Shown here: positions 27,259-36,625 of the stretch, in pieces
Position numbering within the stretch: the stretch's first letter is position 1
Layout: every line of letters starts with the position of its first letter
The notes under the pieces: model-generated
What the model saw: the letters and a program-made list of their open reading frames with translations, nothing else
What the model was told of the DNA's origin: nothing
The model's database searches: none
Assembly: GCA_022827625.1 (NCBI GenBank)
Contig: JAJEIE010000026.1
Span: 1-64,000, forward strand
Source of the DNA: Candidatus Poribacteria bacterium
GTDB taxonomy: Bacteria; Poribacteria; WGA-4E; WGA-3G
Direction of reading: 5' to 3'
Length of the DNA: 64,000 nucleotides
Translations under genes and position numbers: made by a program

Positions 27259-27546
27259 ATGGAAATTATTAGGCGAGACCATCTCGTTGAATTTGCACAG
27301 AAACATCCAAATACACGGCCATCGCTTAACCGTTGGTATGATTTGATGCGAGAAAGAAGTTTTCGCTCGTTTACAGAATTGCGTTCTACATTTCCCCATG
27401 TTTCCCGGGTGGGAAAACTCACAATCTTCAATATTGCTGGTAACAACGTACGCCTCATTGCTTCTATGAGGTATAATGAAGATAGAGTCTACATTCGAGA
27501 TATACTAACGCATGCAGAGTATGATAAAGGAAGGTGGAAGGAGTAA
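27259..27546 (+). CDS. HigB-family mRNA interferase toxin
   Basis: A 95-residue protein of the HigB (RelE superfamily) toxin family, which cleaves mRNA on the ribosome. Typical features are RPSLNRWYDLMRERSFRSFTELRSTFP, then VGKLTIFNIAGNNVRLIASMRYNEDRVYIRDILTHAEYDKGRWK, which is the family core with the C-terminal YDK(G)xWK ending. There is no ribosome site; translation probably depends on gltX 9 bases upstream. The order toxin then antitoxin is normal for hig loci. Confidence 0.88.
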   Translation: MEIIRRDHLVEFAQKHPNTRPSLNRWYDLMRERSFRSFTELRSTFPHVSRVGKLTIFNIAGNNVRLIASMRYNEDRVYIRDILTHAEYDKGRWKE

Positions 27547-27549
27547 ACT

Positions 27550-27864
27550 ATGGTTCCCAAAACAGAAAATGCCCTGAATGTATCTGCAATTGACGCACCT
27601 GTTTCCTTTCAACCGCGAGGCAAGTGCAAATTGCAACCATCTGTTGAGGCATTATGCAACCTAATTGATATTCTGAGCCAAAGCGAGATGTATATACCTG
27701 TTTTATTAACCGAAATCGAATATCGGGAGCTTGCAGCACGGTTAGATGATTTACTGGATATAGTAGGGGAGGAAAATCATACCTTGGCTCCCTTACTGCA
27801 TTTCGTTGGTACGCTAATTAAGAATTATGAAGATGAATACGTCCCGGAACTCACAGAAATTTAG
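27550..27864 (+). CDS. HigA-like antitoxin lacking the helix-turn-helix domain
   Basis: A 104-residue protein directly after the toxin (3-base gap) with an AAGGAG ribosome site. The C-terminal half (LLTEIEYRELAARLDDLLDIVG, then HFVGTLIKNYEDEYVPE) matches the N-terminal part of HigA antitoxins that normally precedes an HTH domain; here the protein ends where the HTH would begin. The N-terminal half is unfamiliar. It could be a neutralising but non-DNA-binding antitoxin, or one that lost its HTH. Confidence 0.6.
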   Translation: MVPKTENALNVSAIDAPVSFQPRGKCKLQPSVEALCNLIDILSQSEMYIPVLLTEIEYRELAARLDDLLDIVGEENHTLAPLLHFVGTLIKNYEDEYVPELTEI

Positions 27865-29283: not shown

Positions 29284-30921
29284 ATGCCAACACTAAACTG
29301 GATCGGTAAAGAAGCCATTATCAATCACCACGATGAGGTGCCAATACACACGCTCACATACGACTGTGATCGCTCCTTCGGTGCTGAAAACGAGCCACTT
29401 GCCACTGGGAACTTACTCGTTGAAGGTGATAACCTCGTTGCACTTAAGGCTCTCCTACCTTATTATGCTGGTAGAGTCAAGTGTATCGTTATTGATCCGC
29501 CGTATAATACGGGCAACGAGAATTGGGTCTACAATGATAATGTCAACCACCCGACCATCCAGAAATGGCTTAGAAAAACGGTTGGAGCACTTGCAGCGGA
29601 TCTCTCACGGCACGATAAGTGGCTCTGTATGATGTACCCGCGTCTTTGTCTCCTTCATCAACTCCTCCGAGAAGATGGTGTTATTTTTATCATGCTTGAT
29701 GATAACGAACAACCCAACCTGCGTCTATTAATGAATGAGATTTTTGGTGAAACGAATTTTGTTGCAAATCTTATTTGGAGAAAAAAAGCAGGCGGTGGAC
29801 AAGATGCTGGGTACTATGCTAGGGAGCATGAGTATATTCTCTGTTACCGAAAAAGTGATGCCTACACTATGAAATTTAGGACCTCAGAAAGAAAGCAAAC
29901 TGAATTTCCTAAGATTAAAAATGGACGGAAATGTAAGTTTGTGAAGCTAGAAAAATGGGGATCCAACGCATATAGGGAGGACCGTCCAACAATGTTTTAT
30001 TCAATTGAGGATCCGGATGGGAATCCTTTCTTCCCACAAGCACCCGATGGAAATGAAGGAAATTGGAGAACGCGTCCTACTGCTTTGGATCAAGACCATA
30101 TTCATTGGATAAAAAGAAGTGAGCGTTGGATACCTTATGAAGTCATCTATTTTGACGAAGTAGAAGATACCGCCAAAATTGTTAAGGAACGTTCTATCTA
30201 TTACGATATCGCGACAACAACAGATGCCGCGAATGAGCAGAAAGCAATTTTTGGAAAAAAGGTTTTTGATAATAGTAAACCCCTCGATCTGATAAAGCGA
30301 TTGATCTTATTGTCTACTGAGCTTGACTCGATTGTCCTGGATTCTTTTGCGGGTAGTGGTACAACGGGGCACGCTGTTCTTGCCCAAAACAATGAGGATG
30401 GCGGAAACCGCCAATTTATTTTAGTTGAACTGGAGTCGAAAATAGCTCGCGAAATTGCATCTGTCCGTCTTAAACGCGTCAGTAAAGGATACACTTTTGA
30501 TAATAAAGACAAACAACAGTGTGAATCCGGTATCGGTGGTACTTTCGCCTATTATCACTTCGGTGAAACCTTCTTGGAAGAACCAGAGATTCCCTTTAAT
30601 GAGATGGCGCAATACCTCTTTTTCAAGGAGACGGGAACCCCAATAGCAATAGAAACCGCGCTGTCCCTTATGGAAGGGGATAGACCCTCGTATGAATCTT
30701 GTACTACTGACGAAAAACGCCAGCGCGCCTTTTTAGGTAGTGTGAGTGGGGTCGGGGTTTATCTGCTCAATAGCGACGATATTTTGACTGAAGAACTCAT
30801 AAGCCGCTTACCGAAACATGATGGCAGTAAGATTATTCATTGTGGCGGGACCCGACTCACGGGTGCCACCTTAAAGCAACTCGGCATAACCTTCCGTCAG
30901 ATGCCGTATAATCTTGTGTAG
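29284..30921 (+). CDS. type III restriction-modification DNA methyltransferase (Mod)
   Basis: A 545-residue N6-adenine methyltransferase that would methylate one strand of an asymmetric site and give the paired Res its specificity. Motif order is beta class: DPPY (D71-Y74 in VIDPPYNTG) precedes the SAM-binding motif FAGSGTTG (from F355). The region between (about 150-330) is the target-recognition part. The C-terminal tail is of type III Mod form. There is no ribosome site before ATG 29284. Its partner res lies 3.3 kb downstream, separated by three genes, whereas mod and res are normally adjacent. Confidence 0.9.
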   Translation: MPTLNWIGKEAIINHHDEVPIHTLTYDCDRSFGAENEPLATGNLLVEGDNLVALKALLPYYAGRVKCIVIDPPYNTGNENWVYNDNVNHPTIQKWLRKTVGALAADLSRHDKWLCMMYPRLCLLHQLLREDGVIFIMLDDNEQPNLRLLMNEIFGETNFVANLIWRKKAGGGQDAGYYAREHEYILCYRKSDAYTMKFRTSERKQTEFPKIKNGRKCKFVKLEKWGSNAYREDRPTMFYSIEDPDGNPFFPQAPDGNEGNWRTRPTALDQDHIHWIKRSERWIPYEVIYFDEVEDTAKIVKERSIYYDIATTTDAANEQKAIFGKKVFDNSKPLDLIKRLILLSTELDSIVLDSFAGSGTTGHAVLAQNNEDGGNRQFILVELESKIAREIASVRLKRVSKGYTFDNKDKQQCESGIGGTFAYYHFGETFLEEPEIPFNEMAQYLFFKETGTPIAIETALSLMEGDRPSYESCTTDEKRQRAFLGSVSGVGVYLLNSDDILTEELISRLPKHDGSKIIHCGGTRLTGATLKQLGITFRQMPYNLV

Positions 30922-31036: not shown

Positions 31037-31066
31037 TTGACAAAATTTGATTAGACATCGTATACT
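31037..31066 (+). promoter_or_regulatory. sigma70-type promoter for the inserted cassette
   Basis: TTGACA at 31037-31042 and TATACT at 31061-31066 with an 18-base spacer, 105 bases before the ATPase start codon. The same gap holds aatcgcggattacacc and a similar phrase ttcacggattttt, and a palindrome taaactattagttta at about 31114-31128. Confidence 0.7.
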
Positions 31067-31170: not shown

Positions 31171-32757
31171 ATGCTTCACGGAATAGAATTAGAAAATTTC
31201 AAAGCATTCGGGAAACGTGCGCGCATCCCCTTTGCACCGATAACACTCATTTTCGGCGAAAACAGTGCCGGAAAGAGTACAATCCTGCAGGCCCTCAATC
31301 TGCTCAAGCAAACGCGCGAAAGCCGCGAAATTGGAGCTCCGCTTTTACCTCGTGCTGAAAATGGGATTGTTAATCTCGGTAGTTTTTGGGAAATGATTTT
31401 CAATCACGACTTGGAACGAACCTTATCAATTCGTGTTGAAACTAAAGTCGATAAAACCAGTCAATTTCCTTTAGCATTCAGAAAGGATAAAATTGGGATT
31501 GAATTAAGTTTCAAGATATCATCTGAGGAAAAAGTGGTTTTTTTAGATCAAATCAAAATTTACTATGGAGAACCTTCTAACTTTATAGCCGAATTTCAAC
31601 TATCAGATGAAACTATCGAACCTGAGGAATTTTTAATGATGGGTTTCTTCCGTGATTCGAGTGAGTTTTCCCGTTCAAAATTATCTGCAGTGAAATGTAC
31701 TCGATTAACAAAGGACCCAAATTATTGGGAACCTGAGTTTAAATGGTATGAAAAGTATAAGGAACAGATACTTCAGCAGCTTGAGGAAAGACTAGAGGAT
31801 CTGGAGCATTCCAATGAACGGTTTAGTAGAAACAGGGATAGACGTGAAGAGCGGTTTATTTCCCTAAAAAACGGTATTGAATTACTTAGATCAGAGCCTA
31901 AGTTGGAGACTTACGTTTCTAAGCGGCATAGTGATGAGATGAATACAATTTTAGGGTTACAAGGCTTTCTTCCAATTAGGATTATGTCCGATAGAAGAAA
32001 TTCTTGGATATCAGAACTTCGGCCATCTGGTGTGCTTCGTACCTATAGATTTGATGCTGCTTTATTAGCGGAAGCAGCAGGTCGAGGATTAGAGCAAGCC
32101 TTGAAAATTCTTTTCTCCATGGGACCTTTTCGAAAAACACCCGAAAGATGGTACATTTTTCAAGGTACTAGCCCTCAGGATGTGGGATATCAAGGAGATT
32201 TGCTTCCAGATTTGCTTTTCCGTCGTCCTGAATTAGTTGGCGAAGCGAATGAATGGCTAAAAAAACTTGACATGGGTTATAAACTAAGGGTAGAACCAGT
32301 ACAGACCGATTCAGGAGATCTTTTTGAAGTTAGACTTATAGATACGCGTCGAAAAAAGTCAGTGAATGTAGCATTACCAGATGTTGGTTTTGGTATTAGT
32401 CAACTTTTGCCATTCGTTGTCCAGAGTTTGGTTCCTGGCAAACAGATTATCTCCATTGAACAGCCCGAGGTACACATTCATCCGAGGTTACAAGCCGATC
32501 TCGGCGATCTTTTGGCGGAAGCCATTAAAAGACACCAGAAACAATTCATCGTTGAGACGCATAGTGAGCACCTGATCTTACGCCTGCAGCGATTAGTTTA
32601 TAAAGGGGAGATTAAGCCAGAAGATGTTTCGGTTATCTATGTCAGTCGTGGGCCTGAGGGGGCAAAGGCAGAACGTTTACGTCTTGATGAGGAAGGCGAT
32701 TTTATTGATGAGTGGCCCAACGGATTCTTTTTGGAACGCCTTCGTGAACTTAGATAG
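31171..32757 (+). CDS. AAA-family ATPase with DUF3696-type C-terminus
   Basis: A 528-residue SMC/OLD-like ATPase. I chose ATG 31171 because TAGGAGA lies 7 bases upstream; an in-frame upstream start at 31126 has none. Walker A is GENSAGKST (29-37). Walker B is QIISIEQPE with E430, followed by VHIHPRLQADLGDLL, and ETHSEHL (from E462) is the switch/H-loop. The end, VSVIYVSRGPEGAKAERLRLDEEGDFIDEWPNGFF, is the DUF3696 signature. A coiled-coil-like charged insert covers about 190-250. Related ATPases drive phage-defence effectors. It is followed 17 bases later by its probable partner. Confidence 0.88.
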   Translation: MLHGIELENFKAFGKRARIPFAPITLIFGENSAGKSTILQALNLLKQTRESREIGAPLLPRAENGIVNLGSFWEMIFNHDLERTLSIRVETKVDKTSQFPLAFRKDKIGIELSFKISSEEKVVFLDQIKIYYGEPSNFIAEFQLSDETIEPEEFLMMGFFRDSSEFSRSKLSAVKCTRLTKDPNYWEPEFKWYEKYKEQILQQLEERLEDLEHSNERFSRNRDRREERFISLKNGIELLRSEPKLETYVSKRHSDEMNTILGLQGFLPIRIMSDRRNSWISELRPSGVLRTYRFDAALLAEAAGRGLEQALKILFSMGPFRKTPERWYIFQGTSPQDVGYQGDLLPDLLFRRPELVGEANEWLKKLDMGYKLRVEPVQTDSGDLFEVRLIDTRRKKSVNVALPDVGFGISQLLPFVVQSLVPGKQIISIEQPEVHIHPRLQADLGDLLAEAIKRHQKQFIVETHSEHLILRLQRLVYKGEIKPEDVSVIYVSRGPEGAKAERLRLDEEGDFIDEWPNGFFLERLRELR

Positions 32758-32774: not shown

Positions 32775-33941
32775 ATGCCAATCACTACAGTCGTTGATCC
32801 TTCTGCATTCAATGTAGATTATTTCAATCCGACTTATCAAAAGCATGCGGAAAATTTCTTAAAAGGTATTGAGGAAGACGGTCTATTAATTGTTGATTCA
32901 GAAAACAAATTGCAAAACGCTATATTTGAACAGATTGCCTCTCTTCCAACCAAGTACCAGCAGCAATTGCAAATTCGGTTTGAGGAACTGTTTAAAAATA
33001 AAAAAGACCGGGTTGTCGAATGTTGTATCTTGTCAAATTACACGTCGTCGGAGGATCTTTTAGATTTAGCATATCACTTGAGAATAGTTAGCGAAGCTGA
33101 TGCCTTAATCGTTGCGGACAAAGATTTTGAAATACTGAAGTCTGATCAAGAATATGATGAAAGCATTTTTCCGTTATCGGGATATAGTGGTGGCGATTTT
33201 GGGAAAAACCATCAAAAGTATTATGACGAATTGAAGTCGATAGATACACACTTGGAATCGGAAGTAGAGGATACTATTATCCATTCAGCACAATTCAACG
33301 ATTGGCTCACATCCATTTTGGAAGAAGATATATTTGTATCACGCGAACGACTCATCGCGCTGCTGGCAAAGGGTGCTCCTCACGAGGAACTTAAAGAAGA
33401 GTTCCGTGAATTTTTCAATGGTTACTACGTACTTACCTCTGAATTGGAGGAGTACGAGGAATCTATCCTTGAAATTATAAAGGGAGACGAGGCATTTATC
33501 TACCTGAAGCACCGTGTCTCAGCGGTTGAGGCACAGCGAAAGAGTTCACCACTTGGACGTGAGGCACGGCGGATGGGGCTTTCTGTACACGGTGATCCTG
33601 TACCAGAGATAAAAGTGACGGAATTACCTCCTGATGGATTCCGAGCGTTGATGGGGACACTCGGAAATTGGAAGCTTTTTGTAGCGCGGGAACGTCTTGT
33701 TAAGTTAATGGAAACAGAATATCCTATTGGGATAGCGGAGCGGCTGCGGGCTGAGTTCTACGGGTTTTTTGTTTGTTATTTAGAACTGGAATTGTTCCTT
33801 GAGAATTATGATTATGATCCAGATGAAGGGTTGGAATTGCGTCCAGAATTCATTGAGTCCTTAGAGCGTGAGGAGGAGTACATCAAGTCTGGTGGAAAAA
33901 TGCTTACGCTTGAGGAGGTTGCTAAACGGTTAGGAACCTAA
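32775..33941 (+). CDS. probable fusion of a PIN-like ATPase partner and tandem antitoxin-like domains
   Basis: A 388-residue protein I do not recognise as a whole. Residues 1-160 begin ITTVVDPSAFNVDY and contain EADALIVADKDFEIL (107-121), a spacing of acidic residues that suggests a PIN-like nuclease fold; such a gene is a plausible partner of DUF3696 ATPases. Residues 176-250 and about 296-370 are an internal repeat: DIFVSRERLIALLAKG...EEFREFFNGYYVL and KLFVARERLVKLMETE...RAEFYGFFVCYL. The C-terminus ends KMLTLEEVAKRLGT. The stop codon is followed at once by the ATG of a RelE-type toxin, so the C-terminal half is the natural candidate antitoxin. Codon use looks like that of the neighbours. 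Confidence 0.6.
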   Translation: MPITTVVDPSAFNVDYFNPTYQKHAENFLKGIEEDGLLIVDSENKLQNAIFEQIASLPTKYQQQLQIRFEELFKNKKDRVVECCILSNYTSSEDLLDLAYHLRIVSEADALIVADKDFEILKSDQEYDESIFPLSGYSGGDFGKNHQKYYDELKSIDTHLESEVEDTIIHSAQFNDWLTSILEEDIFVSRERLIALLAKGAPHEELKEEFREFFNGYYVLTSELEEYEESILEIIKGDEAFIYLKHRVSAVEAQRKSSPLGREARRMGLSVHGDPVPEIKVTELPPDGFRALMGTLGNWKLFVARERLVKLMETEYPIGIAERLRAEFYGFFVCYLELELFLENYDYDPDEGLELRPEFIESLEREEEYIKSGGKMLTLEEVAKRLGT

Positions 33942-34199
33942 ATGTATGAATTGATACTCACTCCAAGTGCTGAAGGAGATTTAAAGCGTTTGGATGGCAA
34001 AATTCAAGGGCAAATTCGCAATAAACTTGAATGGCTGCGAGAAAATTGCGATCAATGGTCTCATAGAGCACTGAAAGGCAACTACAAAGGAAAATTCAAA
34101 TTACCTTCTGGCGACTACCGAATTATCTATACTTATGATAGGCGTGCTCAAACGGTTGAGGTTTCCCGGATTGGACATCGTTCATCTGTTTATGAGTAA
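33942..34199 (+). CDS. RelE/ParE-family toxin
   Basis: An 85-residue protein of the RelE/ParE superfamily, with the order beta-strand (YELILTPSAEGDLKRLD), two helices (KIQGQIRNKLEWLREN), then the core HRALKGNYKGKFKLPSGDYRIIYTYDRRAQTVEVSRIGHRSSVY. RelE proteins cut mRNA in the ribosome; ParE proteins poison gyrase; the sequence does not decide which. Its ATG abuts the stop of the 388-residue gene (TAAATG), indicating strict translational coupling as expected for antitoxin-toxin pairs. res follows after 32 bases. Confidence 0.88.
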   Translation: MYELILTPSAEGDLKRLDGKIQGQIRNKLEWLRENCDQWSHRALKGNYKGKFKLPSGDYRIIYTYDRRAQTVEVSRIGHRSSVYE

Positions 34200-34231: not shown

Positions 34232-36625
34232 ATGCACCTACCGCTCAAAGAATACCAAGAACGGACCCTTGAAACATTAACAGAATATTATCAAAACTGC
34301 TTGCGTTTACAAAATGCCAACACCGCATTCTACGATTTAACCCAACGACCGTACGCTCCTGTTAATGGTTTGTCCGGTATGCCTTATGTCTGCCTTCGGC
34401 TTCCTACAGGCGGTGGCAAAACTTTGGTTGCGTGTCACGCTGTTGACATCACTGCATCAGAACTCCTAAAGACTGAAAGCCCGCTTATCCTTTGGTTGAC
34501 TCCCTCAAACCCTATACGTGAGCAGACGCTCAGTGCTCTTAAAAATCCTAATCACCCCTACAGGAATGCTTTTAAATCCTCAGGACACAGCTTGGAAATC
34601 CGTACTATCAGTGAAGCACTCTATCTGCAACCGCATATTCTCAACACAAAAACCACGATTATCGTCTCCACGATGCAAGCCTTCCGCGTTGAAGACACGG
34701 ATGGACGTAAGGTTTATGAGCCCTCGGGTGCTTTGATGGGGCATTTTACACATCTTTCCGATGAAACCCTCTCCGAAGTTGAGCGCGACGAAAGCGGCAA
34801 ACCTGTCTATTCGCTCGCGAACCTCTTATGCATCAAACGTCCACTTGTTATCGTAGATGAAGCGCATAACGCTCGGACTGAACTCTCTTTTGAAACACTC
34901 GCTCGGTTCAATCCATCTGCAATCATTGAATTTACCGCTACCCCGGATACGACTACAAATCCGTCCAATGTCCTCTATACCGTCTCCGCTGCTGAGCTCC
35001 AAGCAGAGGACATGATTAAGATGCCGATTCAGTTGGAAACAACACCAAATTGGAAACCGCTCCTCGCCGCTGCTATTGCCCAGCGCGACGCATTGGAAAT
35101 GGACGCAAAGAAGGAAAGAGAAGCAACAGGTGAATATATCCGTCCAATCATGCTCATTCAGGCACAGGCCAGGAGCAAAACACGGGAGACTTTGACTATT
35201 GAAGTCGTTGAGAAATGCCTCCTTGAAGAACACCAAATTCCGAAAGAACATATCGCCCGTGCTACGGGTGAGGACAAAGAACTTGATGATGTTGACCTCA
35301 ACGATCCAGAATGTCAAATTCGTTACGTTATCACTGTACAGGCATTACGCGAAGGGTGGGATTGTCCGTTTGCCTATGTTCTCTGCTCTGTCGCTCAGAT
35401 AAGATCTTCTACTGCTGTTGAACAAATATTAGGTAGGATCATGAGACTCCCAAAAGCACAGCGCAAGAAACAAGAATCGCTCAATAGTGCTTATGCTTTC
35501 GTGGCTTCCCAAAACTTCTATGACGCTGCATTTGCATTAGCCGATGGACTCGTTCAGAACGGGTTTGAGAAGCAGGCAGCTGCTGAACTTATCCGCCCTA
35601 CAGATGAGAATCAACCGGATCTACCGCTTTTTGAAGGTCAGACTCTACCAGGCAGCGAACCTGCCCCTGCCCAGCGCGGCGAATTTTTTAAGGTGCCGAA
35701 GTTGATGGTCCAGGGATCTCAAAAACATCTTGACTTTGAAGCATCTCGGTTTTTAGAAACTCCGTGGCGGTTGTCCGAATGCAATGCTGAACTTTCTGAA
35801 GCGGAGTTCCCATCAGAATTTAAGACAGGAGAATTGGGCGAAATAGGACTTTCCCATGAGGGAAGATTAGAAATGCGATTCTTGGGTAAACTCCACCAGC
35901 AGATGTCTTTGCTCACACCGGATAAAAACTGGGATACTACGCGACTTGCTGACTGGCTTGACAGAACGGTTGAACATTGGGACATCTTACGTCGTGAGTC
36001 GCTCCCTTTCCTTCAGAGGTTAGTCGAACATCTTATTGAGGTACGCAAAATTCCAATAGAGGTTCTCATCCGCAACAAATACGCTCTCAAAAGTGCTGCT
36101 GCTGCCAAAATTGATAGCTACCGTCAAGACGTACATCGTGGAGCATATCAAAACCTTCTTCTGCCCGAATGCGAAACGCCTGTTGTTGTCTCACCGGACC
36201 ACTGTTTCTCGTTTGATCCACACCGTTACCCTTACAATACTCGGTACACAGGTGCCTATCGATTCCAGAAACATTATTATCAACATGTCGGTGATCTGAA
36301 GGCAGATGGTGAAGAATTTCGATGTGCACGATTTACCGACGCGCTTCCTGAAGTCAAATATTGGGTGCGGAATCTTGAACGCCAACCGCAGTTCTCCTTT
36401 TGGCTTCAAACTCCAACTGATAAGTTTTATCCCGATTTTGTTTGTCTTTTAACCGATGAACGTTATCTCGTTGTTGAGTATAAGGGTGTGCATCTTTGGT
36501 CTGCTGATGATGCAAAAGAGAAGCGCGAAATAGGTGAGTTATGGGAGAAGCGGAGCGGTGGGAATTGCTTGTTTATTATGCCTAAAGGGCCTGATTTTGA
36601 TGCCATCCGCGCTAAACTCTCCTAA
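34232..36625 (+). CDS. type III restriction enzyme subunit (Res), helicase-nuclease
   Basis: A 797-residue superfamily 2 helicase joined to a nuclease. Walker A is PTGGGKT (58-64) and motif II is DEAH (209-212); FTATPDT is motif III, and AVEQILGRIMRLP is motif VI. The C-terminal PD-(D/E)xK nuclease is visible as P734-D735 and E749-x-K751 in YPDF...VVEYKG. Together these give ATP-dependent DNA cleavage when bound to Mod. The product is complete, so the system may be active despite the cassette between mod and res. Confidence 0.9.
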   Translation: MHLPLKEYQERTLETLTEYYQNCLRLQNANTAFYDLTQRPYAPVNGLSGMPYVCLRLPTGGGKTLVACHAVDITASELLKTESPLILWLTPSNPIREQTLSALKNPNHPYRNAFKSSGHSLEIRTISEALYLQPHILNTKTTIIVSTMQAFRVEDTDGRKVYEPSGALMGHFTHLSDETLSEVERDESGKPVYSLANLLCIKRPLVIVDEAHNARTELSFETLARFNPSAIIEFTATPDTTTNPSNVLYTVSAAELQAEDMIKMPIQLETTPNWKPLLAAAIAQRDALEMDAKKEREATGEYIRPIMLIQAQARSKTRETLTIEVVEKCLLEEHQIPKEHIARATGEDKELDDVDLNDPECQIRYVITVQALREGWDCPFAYVLCSVAQIRSSTAVEQILGRIMRLPKAQRKKQESLNSAYAFVASQNFYDAAFALADGLVQNGFEKQAAAELIRPTDENQPDLPLFEGQTLPGSEPAPAQRGEFFKVPKLMVQGSQKHLDFEASRFLETPWRLSECNAELSEAEFPSEFKTGELGEIGLSHEGRLEMRFLGKLHQQMSLLTPDKNWDTTRLADWLDRTVEHWDILRRESLPFLQRLVEHLIEVRKIPIEVLIRNKYALKSAAAAKIDSYRQDVHRGAYQNLLLPECETPVVVSPDHCFSFDPHRYPYNTRYTGAYRFQKHYYQHVGDLKADGEEFRCARFTDALPEVKYWVRNLERQPQFSFWLQTPTDKFYPDFVCLLTDERYLVVEYKGVHLWSADDAKEKREIGELWEKRSGGNCLFIMPKGPDFDAIRAKLS

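What the first reader, a model, noticed from the sequence alone, without database searches (positions are those of the whole stretch)
32775..34199. Antitoxin-like tandem domains fused to a PIN-like ATPase partner, directly coupled to RelE
The RelE start abuts the stop of the 388-residue gene (TAAATG), the usual arrangement of antitoxin and toxin. Yet the upstream protein is four times longer than a normal antitoxin, and its first 160 residues look like the partner of the preceding ATPase. If correct, loss of the ATPase partner would also free the toxin, linking the defence effector to an addiction switch in a single polypeptide. I know of no described example.
Basis: inference. Interest (0 to 1): 0.8.

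Follow-up and report, generated by a model that had tools for sequence, protein, structure and literature searches.

The report
Defence protein fused to RelE antitoxin
In some sponge-associated Poribacteria, a defence-type ATPase's partner protein has lost its usual second half and carries the antitoxin of a RelE toxin in its place, with the toxin gene directly behind it, so a common growth-stopping toxin may have been put under the control of a virus-sensing machine; the gene architecture is well supported, the control mechanism is inferred.

Summary
A 388-aa gene (32775-33941) is followed without a gap by RelE (33942-34199). Its residues 1-166 are a PIN-like domain; residues 167-388 are two copies of one antitoxin-like repeat. 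Comparison with about 60 related Poribacteria genomes explains it. (1) The normal partner of the upstream ATPase is a 321-345-aa protein: the same PIN-like domain plus a PLD/MIT_C-like half. (2) Residues 167-388 are normally a separate antitoxin of about 230 aa: 72 of 79 related RelE genes in the genus sit 3-29 bases behind one. (3) In five genomes the PLD-like half is gone and the PIN-like domain is joined to the antitoxin. The fused domains form one clade (99/100), but their ATPases do not: three are well-supported sisters of ATPases that use the PLD-type partner. RelE is intact behind all five fusions but in only 4 of 11 unfused operons. All parts show purifying selection.

Best reading: an effector swap, with RelE tethered to an OLD/NsnB-type ATPase through a degenerate PIN domain fused to its antitoxin. 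The architecture is shown; binding and triggering are inferred. Nearest precedents: PtuZ (PIN-like + RelE fold beside an ATPase), PARIS, CmdTAC. New variant of a known kind.

The parts
31037..31066 (+). Consensus-like sigma-70 promoter (TTGACA, 18 nt, TATACT) in front of the ATPase
   Evidence: 11 of 12 matches; the same motif with 16-18 nt spacing lies just upstream of the ATPase in many related loci, e.g. L067, L071, L072, L073, L080. Function inferred.
31171..32757 (+). OLD/NsnB/AriA-type P-loop ATPase (528 aa from ATG 31171; listed as 543 aa from TTG 31126)
   Evidence: Pfam AAA_15 4.7e-27, AAA_21 1.5e-17, DUF3696 24.3 vs cut-off 22; PADLOC HEC-03B 201 bits, NsnB 187 bits, PDC-M55A 185 bits, AriA 104 bits. 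Walker A GENSAGKST and IEQPEVHIHP box read directly from the sequence.
31606..32085 (+). Hypervariable middle of the ATPase (31-49% mean pairwise identity against 81-87% at the ends); candidate sensor region
   Evidence: Sensor role inferred.
32775..33272 (+). Residues 1-166 of the fusion: degenerate PIN-like domain, the conserved N-terminal half of the ATPase partner
   Evidence: 31 genomes; AF2 pLDDT mostly 75-90 up to residue 140; Foldseek 2mdt PilT N-terminus protein prob 0.99 and 3ix7 prob 0.99, E 0.03; D8, D41, D109 invariant, acid at position 115 not conserved.
33273..33605 (+). Antitoxin repeat 1 (about residues 167-277)
   Evidence: hhalign repeat 1 vs repeat 2 prob 99.5, E 1e-22; helical, pLDDT mostly 74-86 for residues 171-250, lower beyond.
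33606..33941 (+). Antitoxin repeat 2 with the most conserved tail DYDPDEGLELRPEF...TLEEVAKRLG, and the TAA stop
   Evidence: Alignment of 28 antitoxins; lowest pN/pS of the fusion, 0.16-0.31.
33942..34199 (+). RelE toxin, 85 aa; start codon directly after the antitoxin stop
   Evidence: profile matches E. coli RelE 4fxe_D E 5.7e-5 with Lys/Lys/Arg/Arg/Tyr at the aligned active-site positions; Foldseek 4fxe_E prob 0.96.
29284..30921 (+). Type III restriction-modification Mod subunit (flanking, not required by the unit)
   Evidence: PADLOC MTase_III 5e-144.
34232..36625 (+). Type III restriction-modification Res subunit (flanking)
   Evidence: PADLOC REase_III 4e-143.

Best explanation
This is an effector-swapped version of a two-gene ATPase defence module. 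In the common form an OLD/NsnB-type ATPase works with a partner made of a degenerate PIN-like domain and a PLD/MIT_C-like half. Here an in-frame deletion removed the PLD-like half and joined the PIN-like domain to the antitoxin of a neighbouring RelE toxin-antitoxin pair. The proposed working is as follows. The PIN-like domain docks on the ATPase; the tandem antitoxin holds RelE inactive in the same complex; a phage signal read by the ATPase (probably through its hypervariable middle) loosens or destabilises the antitoxin; RelE then cleaves mRNA in the ribosome and stops the infected cell. Shown: the architecture, its recurrence, the swap, the regular antitoxin-RelE pairing, and selective constraint on all parts. 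Inferred: docking, inhibition, triggering, and abortive infection as the outcome.
For: The PIN-like domain occurs in 31 of 146 genomes, mostly as the first half of a 321-360-aa frame. Residues 167-388 are a separate gene downstream of it in at least 11 genomes and are fused to it in five (G000, G032, G033, G052, G045). The lost half matches Pfam MIT_C (E 0.006) and the MITD1 PLD-like domain (4a5z prob 0.97). The separate antitoxin is the regular neighbour of RelE: 72 of 79 RelE genes lie 3-29 bases behind one. Fused PIN-like domains are one clade (99/100), but their ATPases need 5 changes on the tree; sister pairs L071-L081 (84% identical), L073-L065 (80%) and L074-L083 (74%) each join a fused to an unfused operon at 100/100 or 100/99 support. 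In L074 against L083, at one site outside any R-M system, DNA is collinear up to the start of the partner gene and again after RelE. RelE is intact behind 5 of 5 fusions and 4 of 11 unfused operons. pN/pS of the fused PIN-like domain is 0.43, against 0.44 in unfused ones, so it is not vestigial. RelE keeps aligned catalytic residues.
Against: No complex could be predicted: multimer runs were not available, and the RelE part of the read-through chain has pLDDT mostly below 50. Nothing shows that the PIN-like domain binds the ATPase. RelE in G032 shows relaxed constraint and has lost lysines, so the toxin is not kept equally everywhere. The 5/5 versus 4/11 contrast is not phylogenetically independent, because the fused clade has one origin. 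PIN and PLD fold matches are moderate (E 0.02-0.04).
Confidence: 0.5

Rival explanations
1. Ordinary toxin-antitoxin pair whose antitoxin picked up an extra N-terminal domain by deletion. RelE-antitoxin works only as an addiction or stabilising module for the R-M island, and ATPase control plays no part.
For: The same antitoxin-RelE pair exists as a stand-alone module throughout the genus (72 pairs) and next to the unfused partner (L066, L068, L080). A deletion between neighbouring genes is enough to make the fusion.
Against: The PIN-like domain of the fusion is as constrained as in the unfused form, it stays behind an intact ATPase in all five genomes, and RelE decays in 7 of 11 unfused operons but in none of the five fusions. 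In G045 the unit exists outside an R-M system.
Confidence: 0.27
2. The ATPase-PIN unit is the working defence and the PIN-like domain is its effector. The fused antitoxin and RelE are a guard that kills the cell when a phage disrupts or degrades the ATPase-PIN protein.
For: Fusion would tie antitoxin level to the integrity of the defence protein. A comparable logic is known in CmdTAC, where loss of the chaperone leads to antitoxin degradation (PMC11618068).
Against: The PIN-like domain keeps D8, D41 and D109 but not the acid after strand 4, so it is probably not a nuclease. Without the PLD-like half no other effector is apparent.
Confidence: 0.15
3. Degenerating locus: loss of the PLD-like half inactivated the defence module, and the remnants are drifting.
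For: Partner genes and RelE are broken in several relatives (L091 split partner, L137 RelE remnant, L081 RelE remnant). G032 RelE looks relaxed.
Against: Five genomes in two genera keep full-length ATPase, fusion and RelE frames at roughly 50-80% identity, with pN/pS well below 1 in every segment.
Confidence: 0.08

Closest known systems
ptuXYZ (Gerdes 2025, mBio, PMC11980606)
   Same: P-loop ATPase next to a protein with a PIN-like domain lacking catalytic residues, and a RelE/YoeB-fold toxin as the likely effector.
   Different: In PtuZ the toxin domain is covalently fused to the PIN-like domain and no antitoxin is part of the fusion. Here the antitoxin is fused and RelE is a separate protein. 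No DUF262 gene (PtuX) is seen here.
Menshen (NsnABC)
   Same: The ATPase matches PADLOC NsnB over 16-535 with 187 bits.
   Different: NsnC matches neither the PIN-like domain, the full partner nor RelE by profile comparison, and no NsnC-family gene is found in G000.
PARIS (AriA-AriB)
   Same: OLD-type ATPase that holds a translation-blocking toxin and releases it on a phage trigger (PMC11455837); the ATPase matches AriA models.
   Different: Effector is a TOPRIM nuclease held by the ATPase itself; there is no antitoxin or PIN-like domain.
OLD-ABC ATPase paired with PIN, HNH or REase partners in BREX and related systems (PMC12839542)
   Same: OLD-ABC ATPase with a PIN partner inside or beside a restriction-type system, read there as a backup effector layer.
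   Different: The section read describes no antitoxin or RelE fusion with these ATPases; the PIN domain is treated as the nuclease.
CmdTAC and other toxin-antitoxin-chaperone systems (PMC11618068)
   Same: An antitoxin physically linked to a sensing component so that infection frees the toxin.
   Different: The sensor is a SecB-like chaperone and the toxin an ADP-ribosyltransferase; the link is non-covalent.
RelBE / RelFG type II toxin-antitoxin modules
   Same: RelE fold, aligned active-site residues, antitoxin gene first with the toxin start at or within its end.
   Different: The antitoxin is a tandem helical repeat of about 110 aa per copy with no Pfam family, nearly restricted here to one Poribacteria family, and in the finding it is fused to a defence partner.

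Membership tests
RelE/ParE type II toxin-antitoxin | RelE-fold toxin above curated cut-off | tested here: met
   TIGR02385 30.1 vs 27.9 bits; ParE_toxin 44.6 vs 23
RelE/ParE type II toxin-antitoxin | Catalytic Lys/Lys/Arg/Arg/Tyr at RelE-aligned positions | tested here: met
   Profile alignment to 4v7k_Ay and 4fxe_D; family alignment. The list of catalytic residues is from general knowledge of E. coli RelE.
RelE/ParE type II toxin-antitoxin | Antitoxin gene adjacent and upstream | tested here: met
   Zero-base gap here; 72 of 79 in the genus
RelE/ParE type II toxin-antitoxin | Antitoxin binds and neutralises the toxin | not testable with these tools
   RelE part of the model low confidence; no multimer prediction
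PARIS | AriA-like OLD ATPase | tested here: met
   AriA models 104 and 63 bits
PARIS | AriB TOPRIM nuclease partner | tested here: not met
   Partner is PIN-like plus antitoxin; no TOPRIM match
Menshen NsnABC | NsnB ATPase | tested here: met
   187 bits over 16-535; PADLOC gives no cut-off here
Menshen NsnABC | NsnC partner | tested here: not met
   No PADLOC match of the partner, hhalign prob 0.1-0.2, no NsnC hit in G000
ptuXYZ | PIN-like domain covalently fused to a RelE/YoeB-fold toxin | tested here: not met
   PIN-like domain is fused to the antitoxin; RelE is a separate ORF
ptuXYZ | DUF262 protein (PtuX) in the operon | tested here: not met
   Neighbours are Mod and Res of a type III R-M system
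PIN domain | PIN fold | tested here: met
   Foldseek 2mdt and 3ix7, prob 0.99, but E about 0.03
PIN domain | Conserved acidic catalytic set | tested here: inconclusive
   D8, D41 and D109 invariant, acid at 115 not conserved; the assignment of canonical positions is by eye
Type III restriction-modification | mod and res genes | tested here: met
   Flanking genes 29284-30921 and 34232-36625; the unit itself also occurs without them in G045

The most novel reading that the evidence does not exclude
A natural effector swap in a defence ATPase module. The ATPase and its PIN-like adaptor form an interchangeable sensing platform; the antitoxin is used as a socket that plugs a diffusible RelE toxin into that platform, so an antitoxin serves as the adaptor of an immune sensor rather than as a plain inhibitor.
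Probability: 0.4. Interest if true: 0.8.

Novelty: new variant of a known kind. Interest (0 to 1): 0.62.

Why it matters
If true, it shows directly, by comparison of closely related operons, how a defence system can change weapons while keeping its sensor: the PLD-like half is exchanged for an antitoxin that brings its toxin along. It would give a simple evolutionary route from free-standing toxin-antitoxin pairs to sensor-controlled immune effectors, a question usually argued from end products only. It also offers matched pairs (L071/L081, L073/L065, L074/L083) for a clean experimental test of sensor-effector modularity.

Tried and rejected
Pfam, NCBIfam and PADLOC scans of the 388-aa protein: no meaningful match. 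PADLOC and Pfam scans of full partners: only weak BrxL and MIT_C matches; Pfam scan of 21 PIN-like domains: nothing consistent. PDB sequence search with the partner: none. Plasmid collection searched for partner and antitoxin: none. Menshen membership through NsnC: rejected by profile comparison. Read-through of the TAA to model antitoxin and RelE as one chain: PIN-like domain and antitoxin modelled well, RelE part below confidence, so contact could not be judged. Assembly artefact: rejected, since the fusion occurs in five genomes including the single-contig assembly G045. Several independent fusions: not supported, one clade at 99/100 for the PIN-like domain; the antitoxin tree is too poorly resolved to add to this. 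Literature: nothing found describing this fusion in the open-access library; most subscription papers are not held there.

Full report
What is there. The window comes from a Poribacteria genome: the closest loci in GTDB are all labelled Candidatus Poribacteria. Between the Mod (29284-30921) and Res (34232-36625) genes of a type III restriction-modification system lie three close-packed genes: an ATPase, the 388-aa protein of the finding, and RelE. The 388-aa frame ends in TAA at 33939-33941 and RelE starts at 33942, in frame. The ATPase has AAA_15/AAA_21 and DUF3696 matches and best resembles PADLOC HEC-03B, NsnB, PDC-M55A and, less, AriA. A near-consensus promoter at 31037-31066 lies in front of the ATPase and recurs upstream of it in many relatives, which suggests that the unit is transcribed apart from mod.

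The two halves. Residues 167-388 consist of two copies of one repeat of about 110 residues (hhalign probability 99.5, E 1e-22). In the same genome three stand-alone genes encode this part, and it was found in 51 of 146 genomes searched, nearly all of one family. In the genus, 72 of 79 RelE homologues sit 3-29 bases behind such a gene, and 72 of 96 such genes have RelE behind them. It is therefore the regular antitoxin of a lineage-specific RelE family, inferred from gene order. Residues 1-166 occur in 31 of 146 genomes, directly behind the ATPase in the loci examined. There they usually continue into a second half that resembles the PLD-like MIT_C domain (Pfam E 0.006; MITD1 4a5z prob 0.97, E 0.02). 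AF2 models the first domain with good confidence, and Foldseek pairs it with PIN-domain proteins (2mdt, 3ix7, prob 0.99, E 0.03). D8, D41 and D109 are invariant, but the acid expected after strand 4 is not kept, so the domain is probably a degenerate PIN; that last step is a judgement by eye.

How the fusion arose. In five genomes (G000, G032, G033, G052, G045) the PLD-like half is missing and the PIN-like domain runs into the antitoxin at the same place; unfused partner (IIRSxRFxKWL) and unfused antitoxin (ITSxQFxxWL) share a similar F..WL stretch there. In L071 against the unfused L081 the DNA is collinear on both sides of the missing half. The fused PIN-like domains form one clade (99/100). 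Their ATPases do not: three have sister ATPases, at 74-84% identity and 100/100 or 100/99 support, that go with PIN-PLD partners. In L074 against L083, at the same site and outside any R-M system, the DNA is collinear up to the start of the partner gene and again after RelE. So similar ATPases work beside either kind of partner. The ATPase itself has conserved ends (81-87% mean identity) and a hypervariable middle (31-49%), as one would expect of a changing sensor.

Is it kept by selection? RelE is intact behind all five fusions but in 4 of 11 unfused operons with the antitoxin at this place (G003, G016, G026, G040); the other seven (G001, G005, G011, G015, G029, G031, G036) have lost it or keep only remnants, and G035 ends at a contig edge. 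A simple count gives 126/4368 = 0.03, but the fused genomes are not independent. pN/pS is below 1 in every segment of the fusion and in RelE; synonymous sites are partly saturated, so the ratios are rough. The PIN-like domain is as constrained in fused (0.43) as in unfused (0.44) genes, so it is not a leftover. RelE carries the aligned catalytic residues of E. coli RelE. In G032 RelE is relaxed.

How it most likely works. I propose that the PIN-like domain binds the ATPase, that the antitoxin part holds RelE, and that a phage signal read by the ATPase releases RelE, which stops translation. None of the binding or triggering steps is shown. PARIS supplies the closest worked-out logic (ATPase holds a toxin and releases it on a trigger; PMC11455837), and CmdTAC shows an antitoxin used as the link to a sensor (PMC11618068). 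The closest architecture is ptuXYZ, in which an ATPase stands beside a protein with a catalytically dead PIN-like domain and a RelE/YoeB-fold toxin (PMC11980606). OLD-type ATPases with PIN partners have been described as backup effectors in BREX-like systems (PMC12839542). It is not PARIS (no TOPRIM), not Menshen (no NsnC) and not ptuXYZ (no DUF262 protein; toxin not covalently fused).

What is and is not settled. Open: whether residues 167-388 neutralise RelE (no complex could be modelled), whether the fusion binds the ATPase, and whether RelE is the defence effector or only an addiction partner.

Noticed in passing
window 27259-27864: A second toxin-antitoxin-like pair upstream: HigB_toxin (Pfam 2e-26) followed by a 104-aa gene without a Pfam match.
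   Followed up: no
L137 2436-3155 (G001): The antitoxin frame runs on into the last 16 residues of RelE: a deletion has removed most of the toxin and joined its tail to the antitoxin.
   Followed up: partly
L074 4238-7219 (G045): ATPase, fusion and RelE present outside any R-M system, at a site where L083 has the ATPase with the PIN-PLD partner.
   Followed up: yes
L078 4461-7253 (G125): A distant ATPase with a full PIN-PLD partner (36% identity in the PIN-like part) in a genome related only at domain level, so the two-gene module is not confined to Poribacteria.
   Followed up: partly
L075 489-8720 (G050): ATPase and PIN-PLD partner sit between a gene with an N6-methylase-like part (830 aa here; 1,100 aa in L087) and a 1,004-aa gene, apparently a different kind of restriction-like system.
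   Followed up: no
L144, L145: Menshen-type loci: the gene before the ATPase looks like the end of a DUF262 protein and NsnC ends in a WH.K...IHF...YIG motif; Menshen and ptuXYZ may be the same or sister systems.
   Followed up: partly
L066 220-3336 (G040): Two mod-like methylase genes in a row before the ATPase, and an extra 365-aa gene between partner and antitoxin.
   Followed up: no
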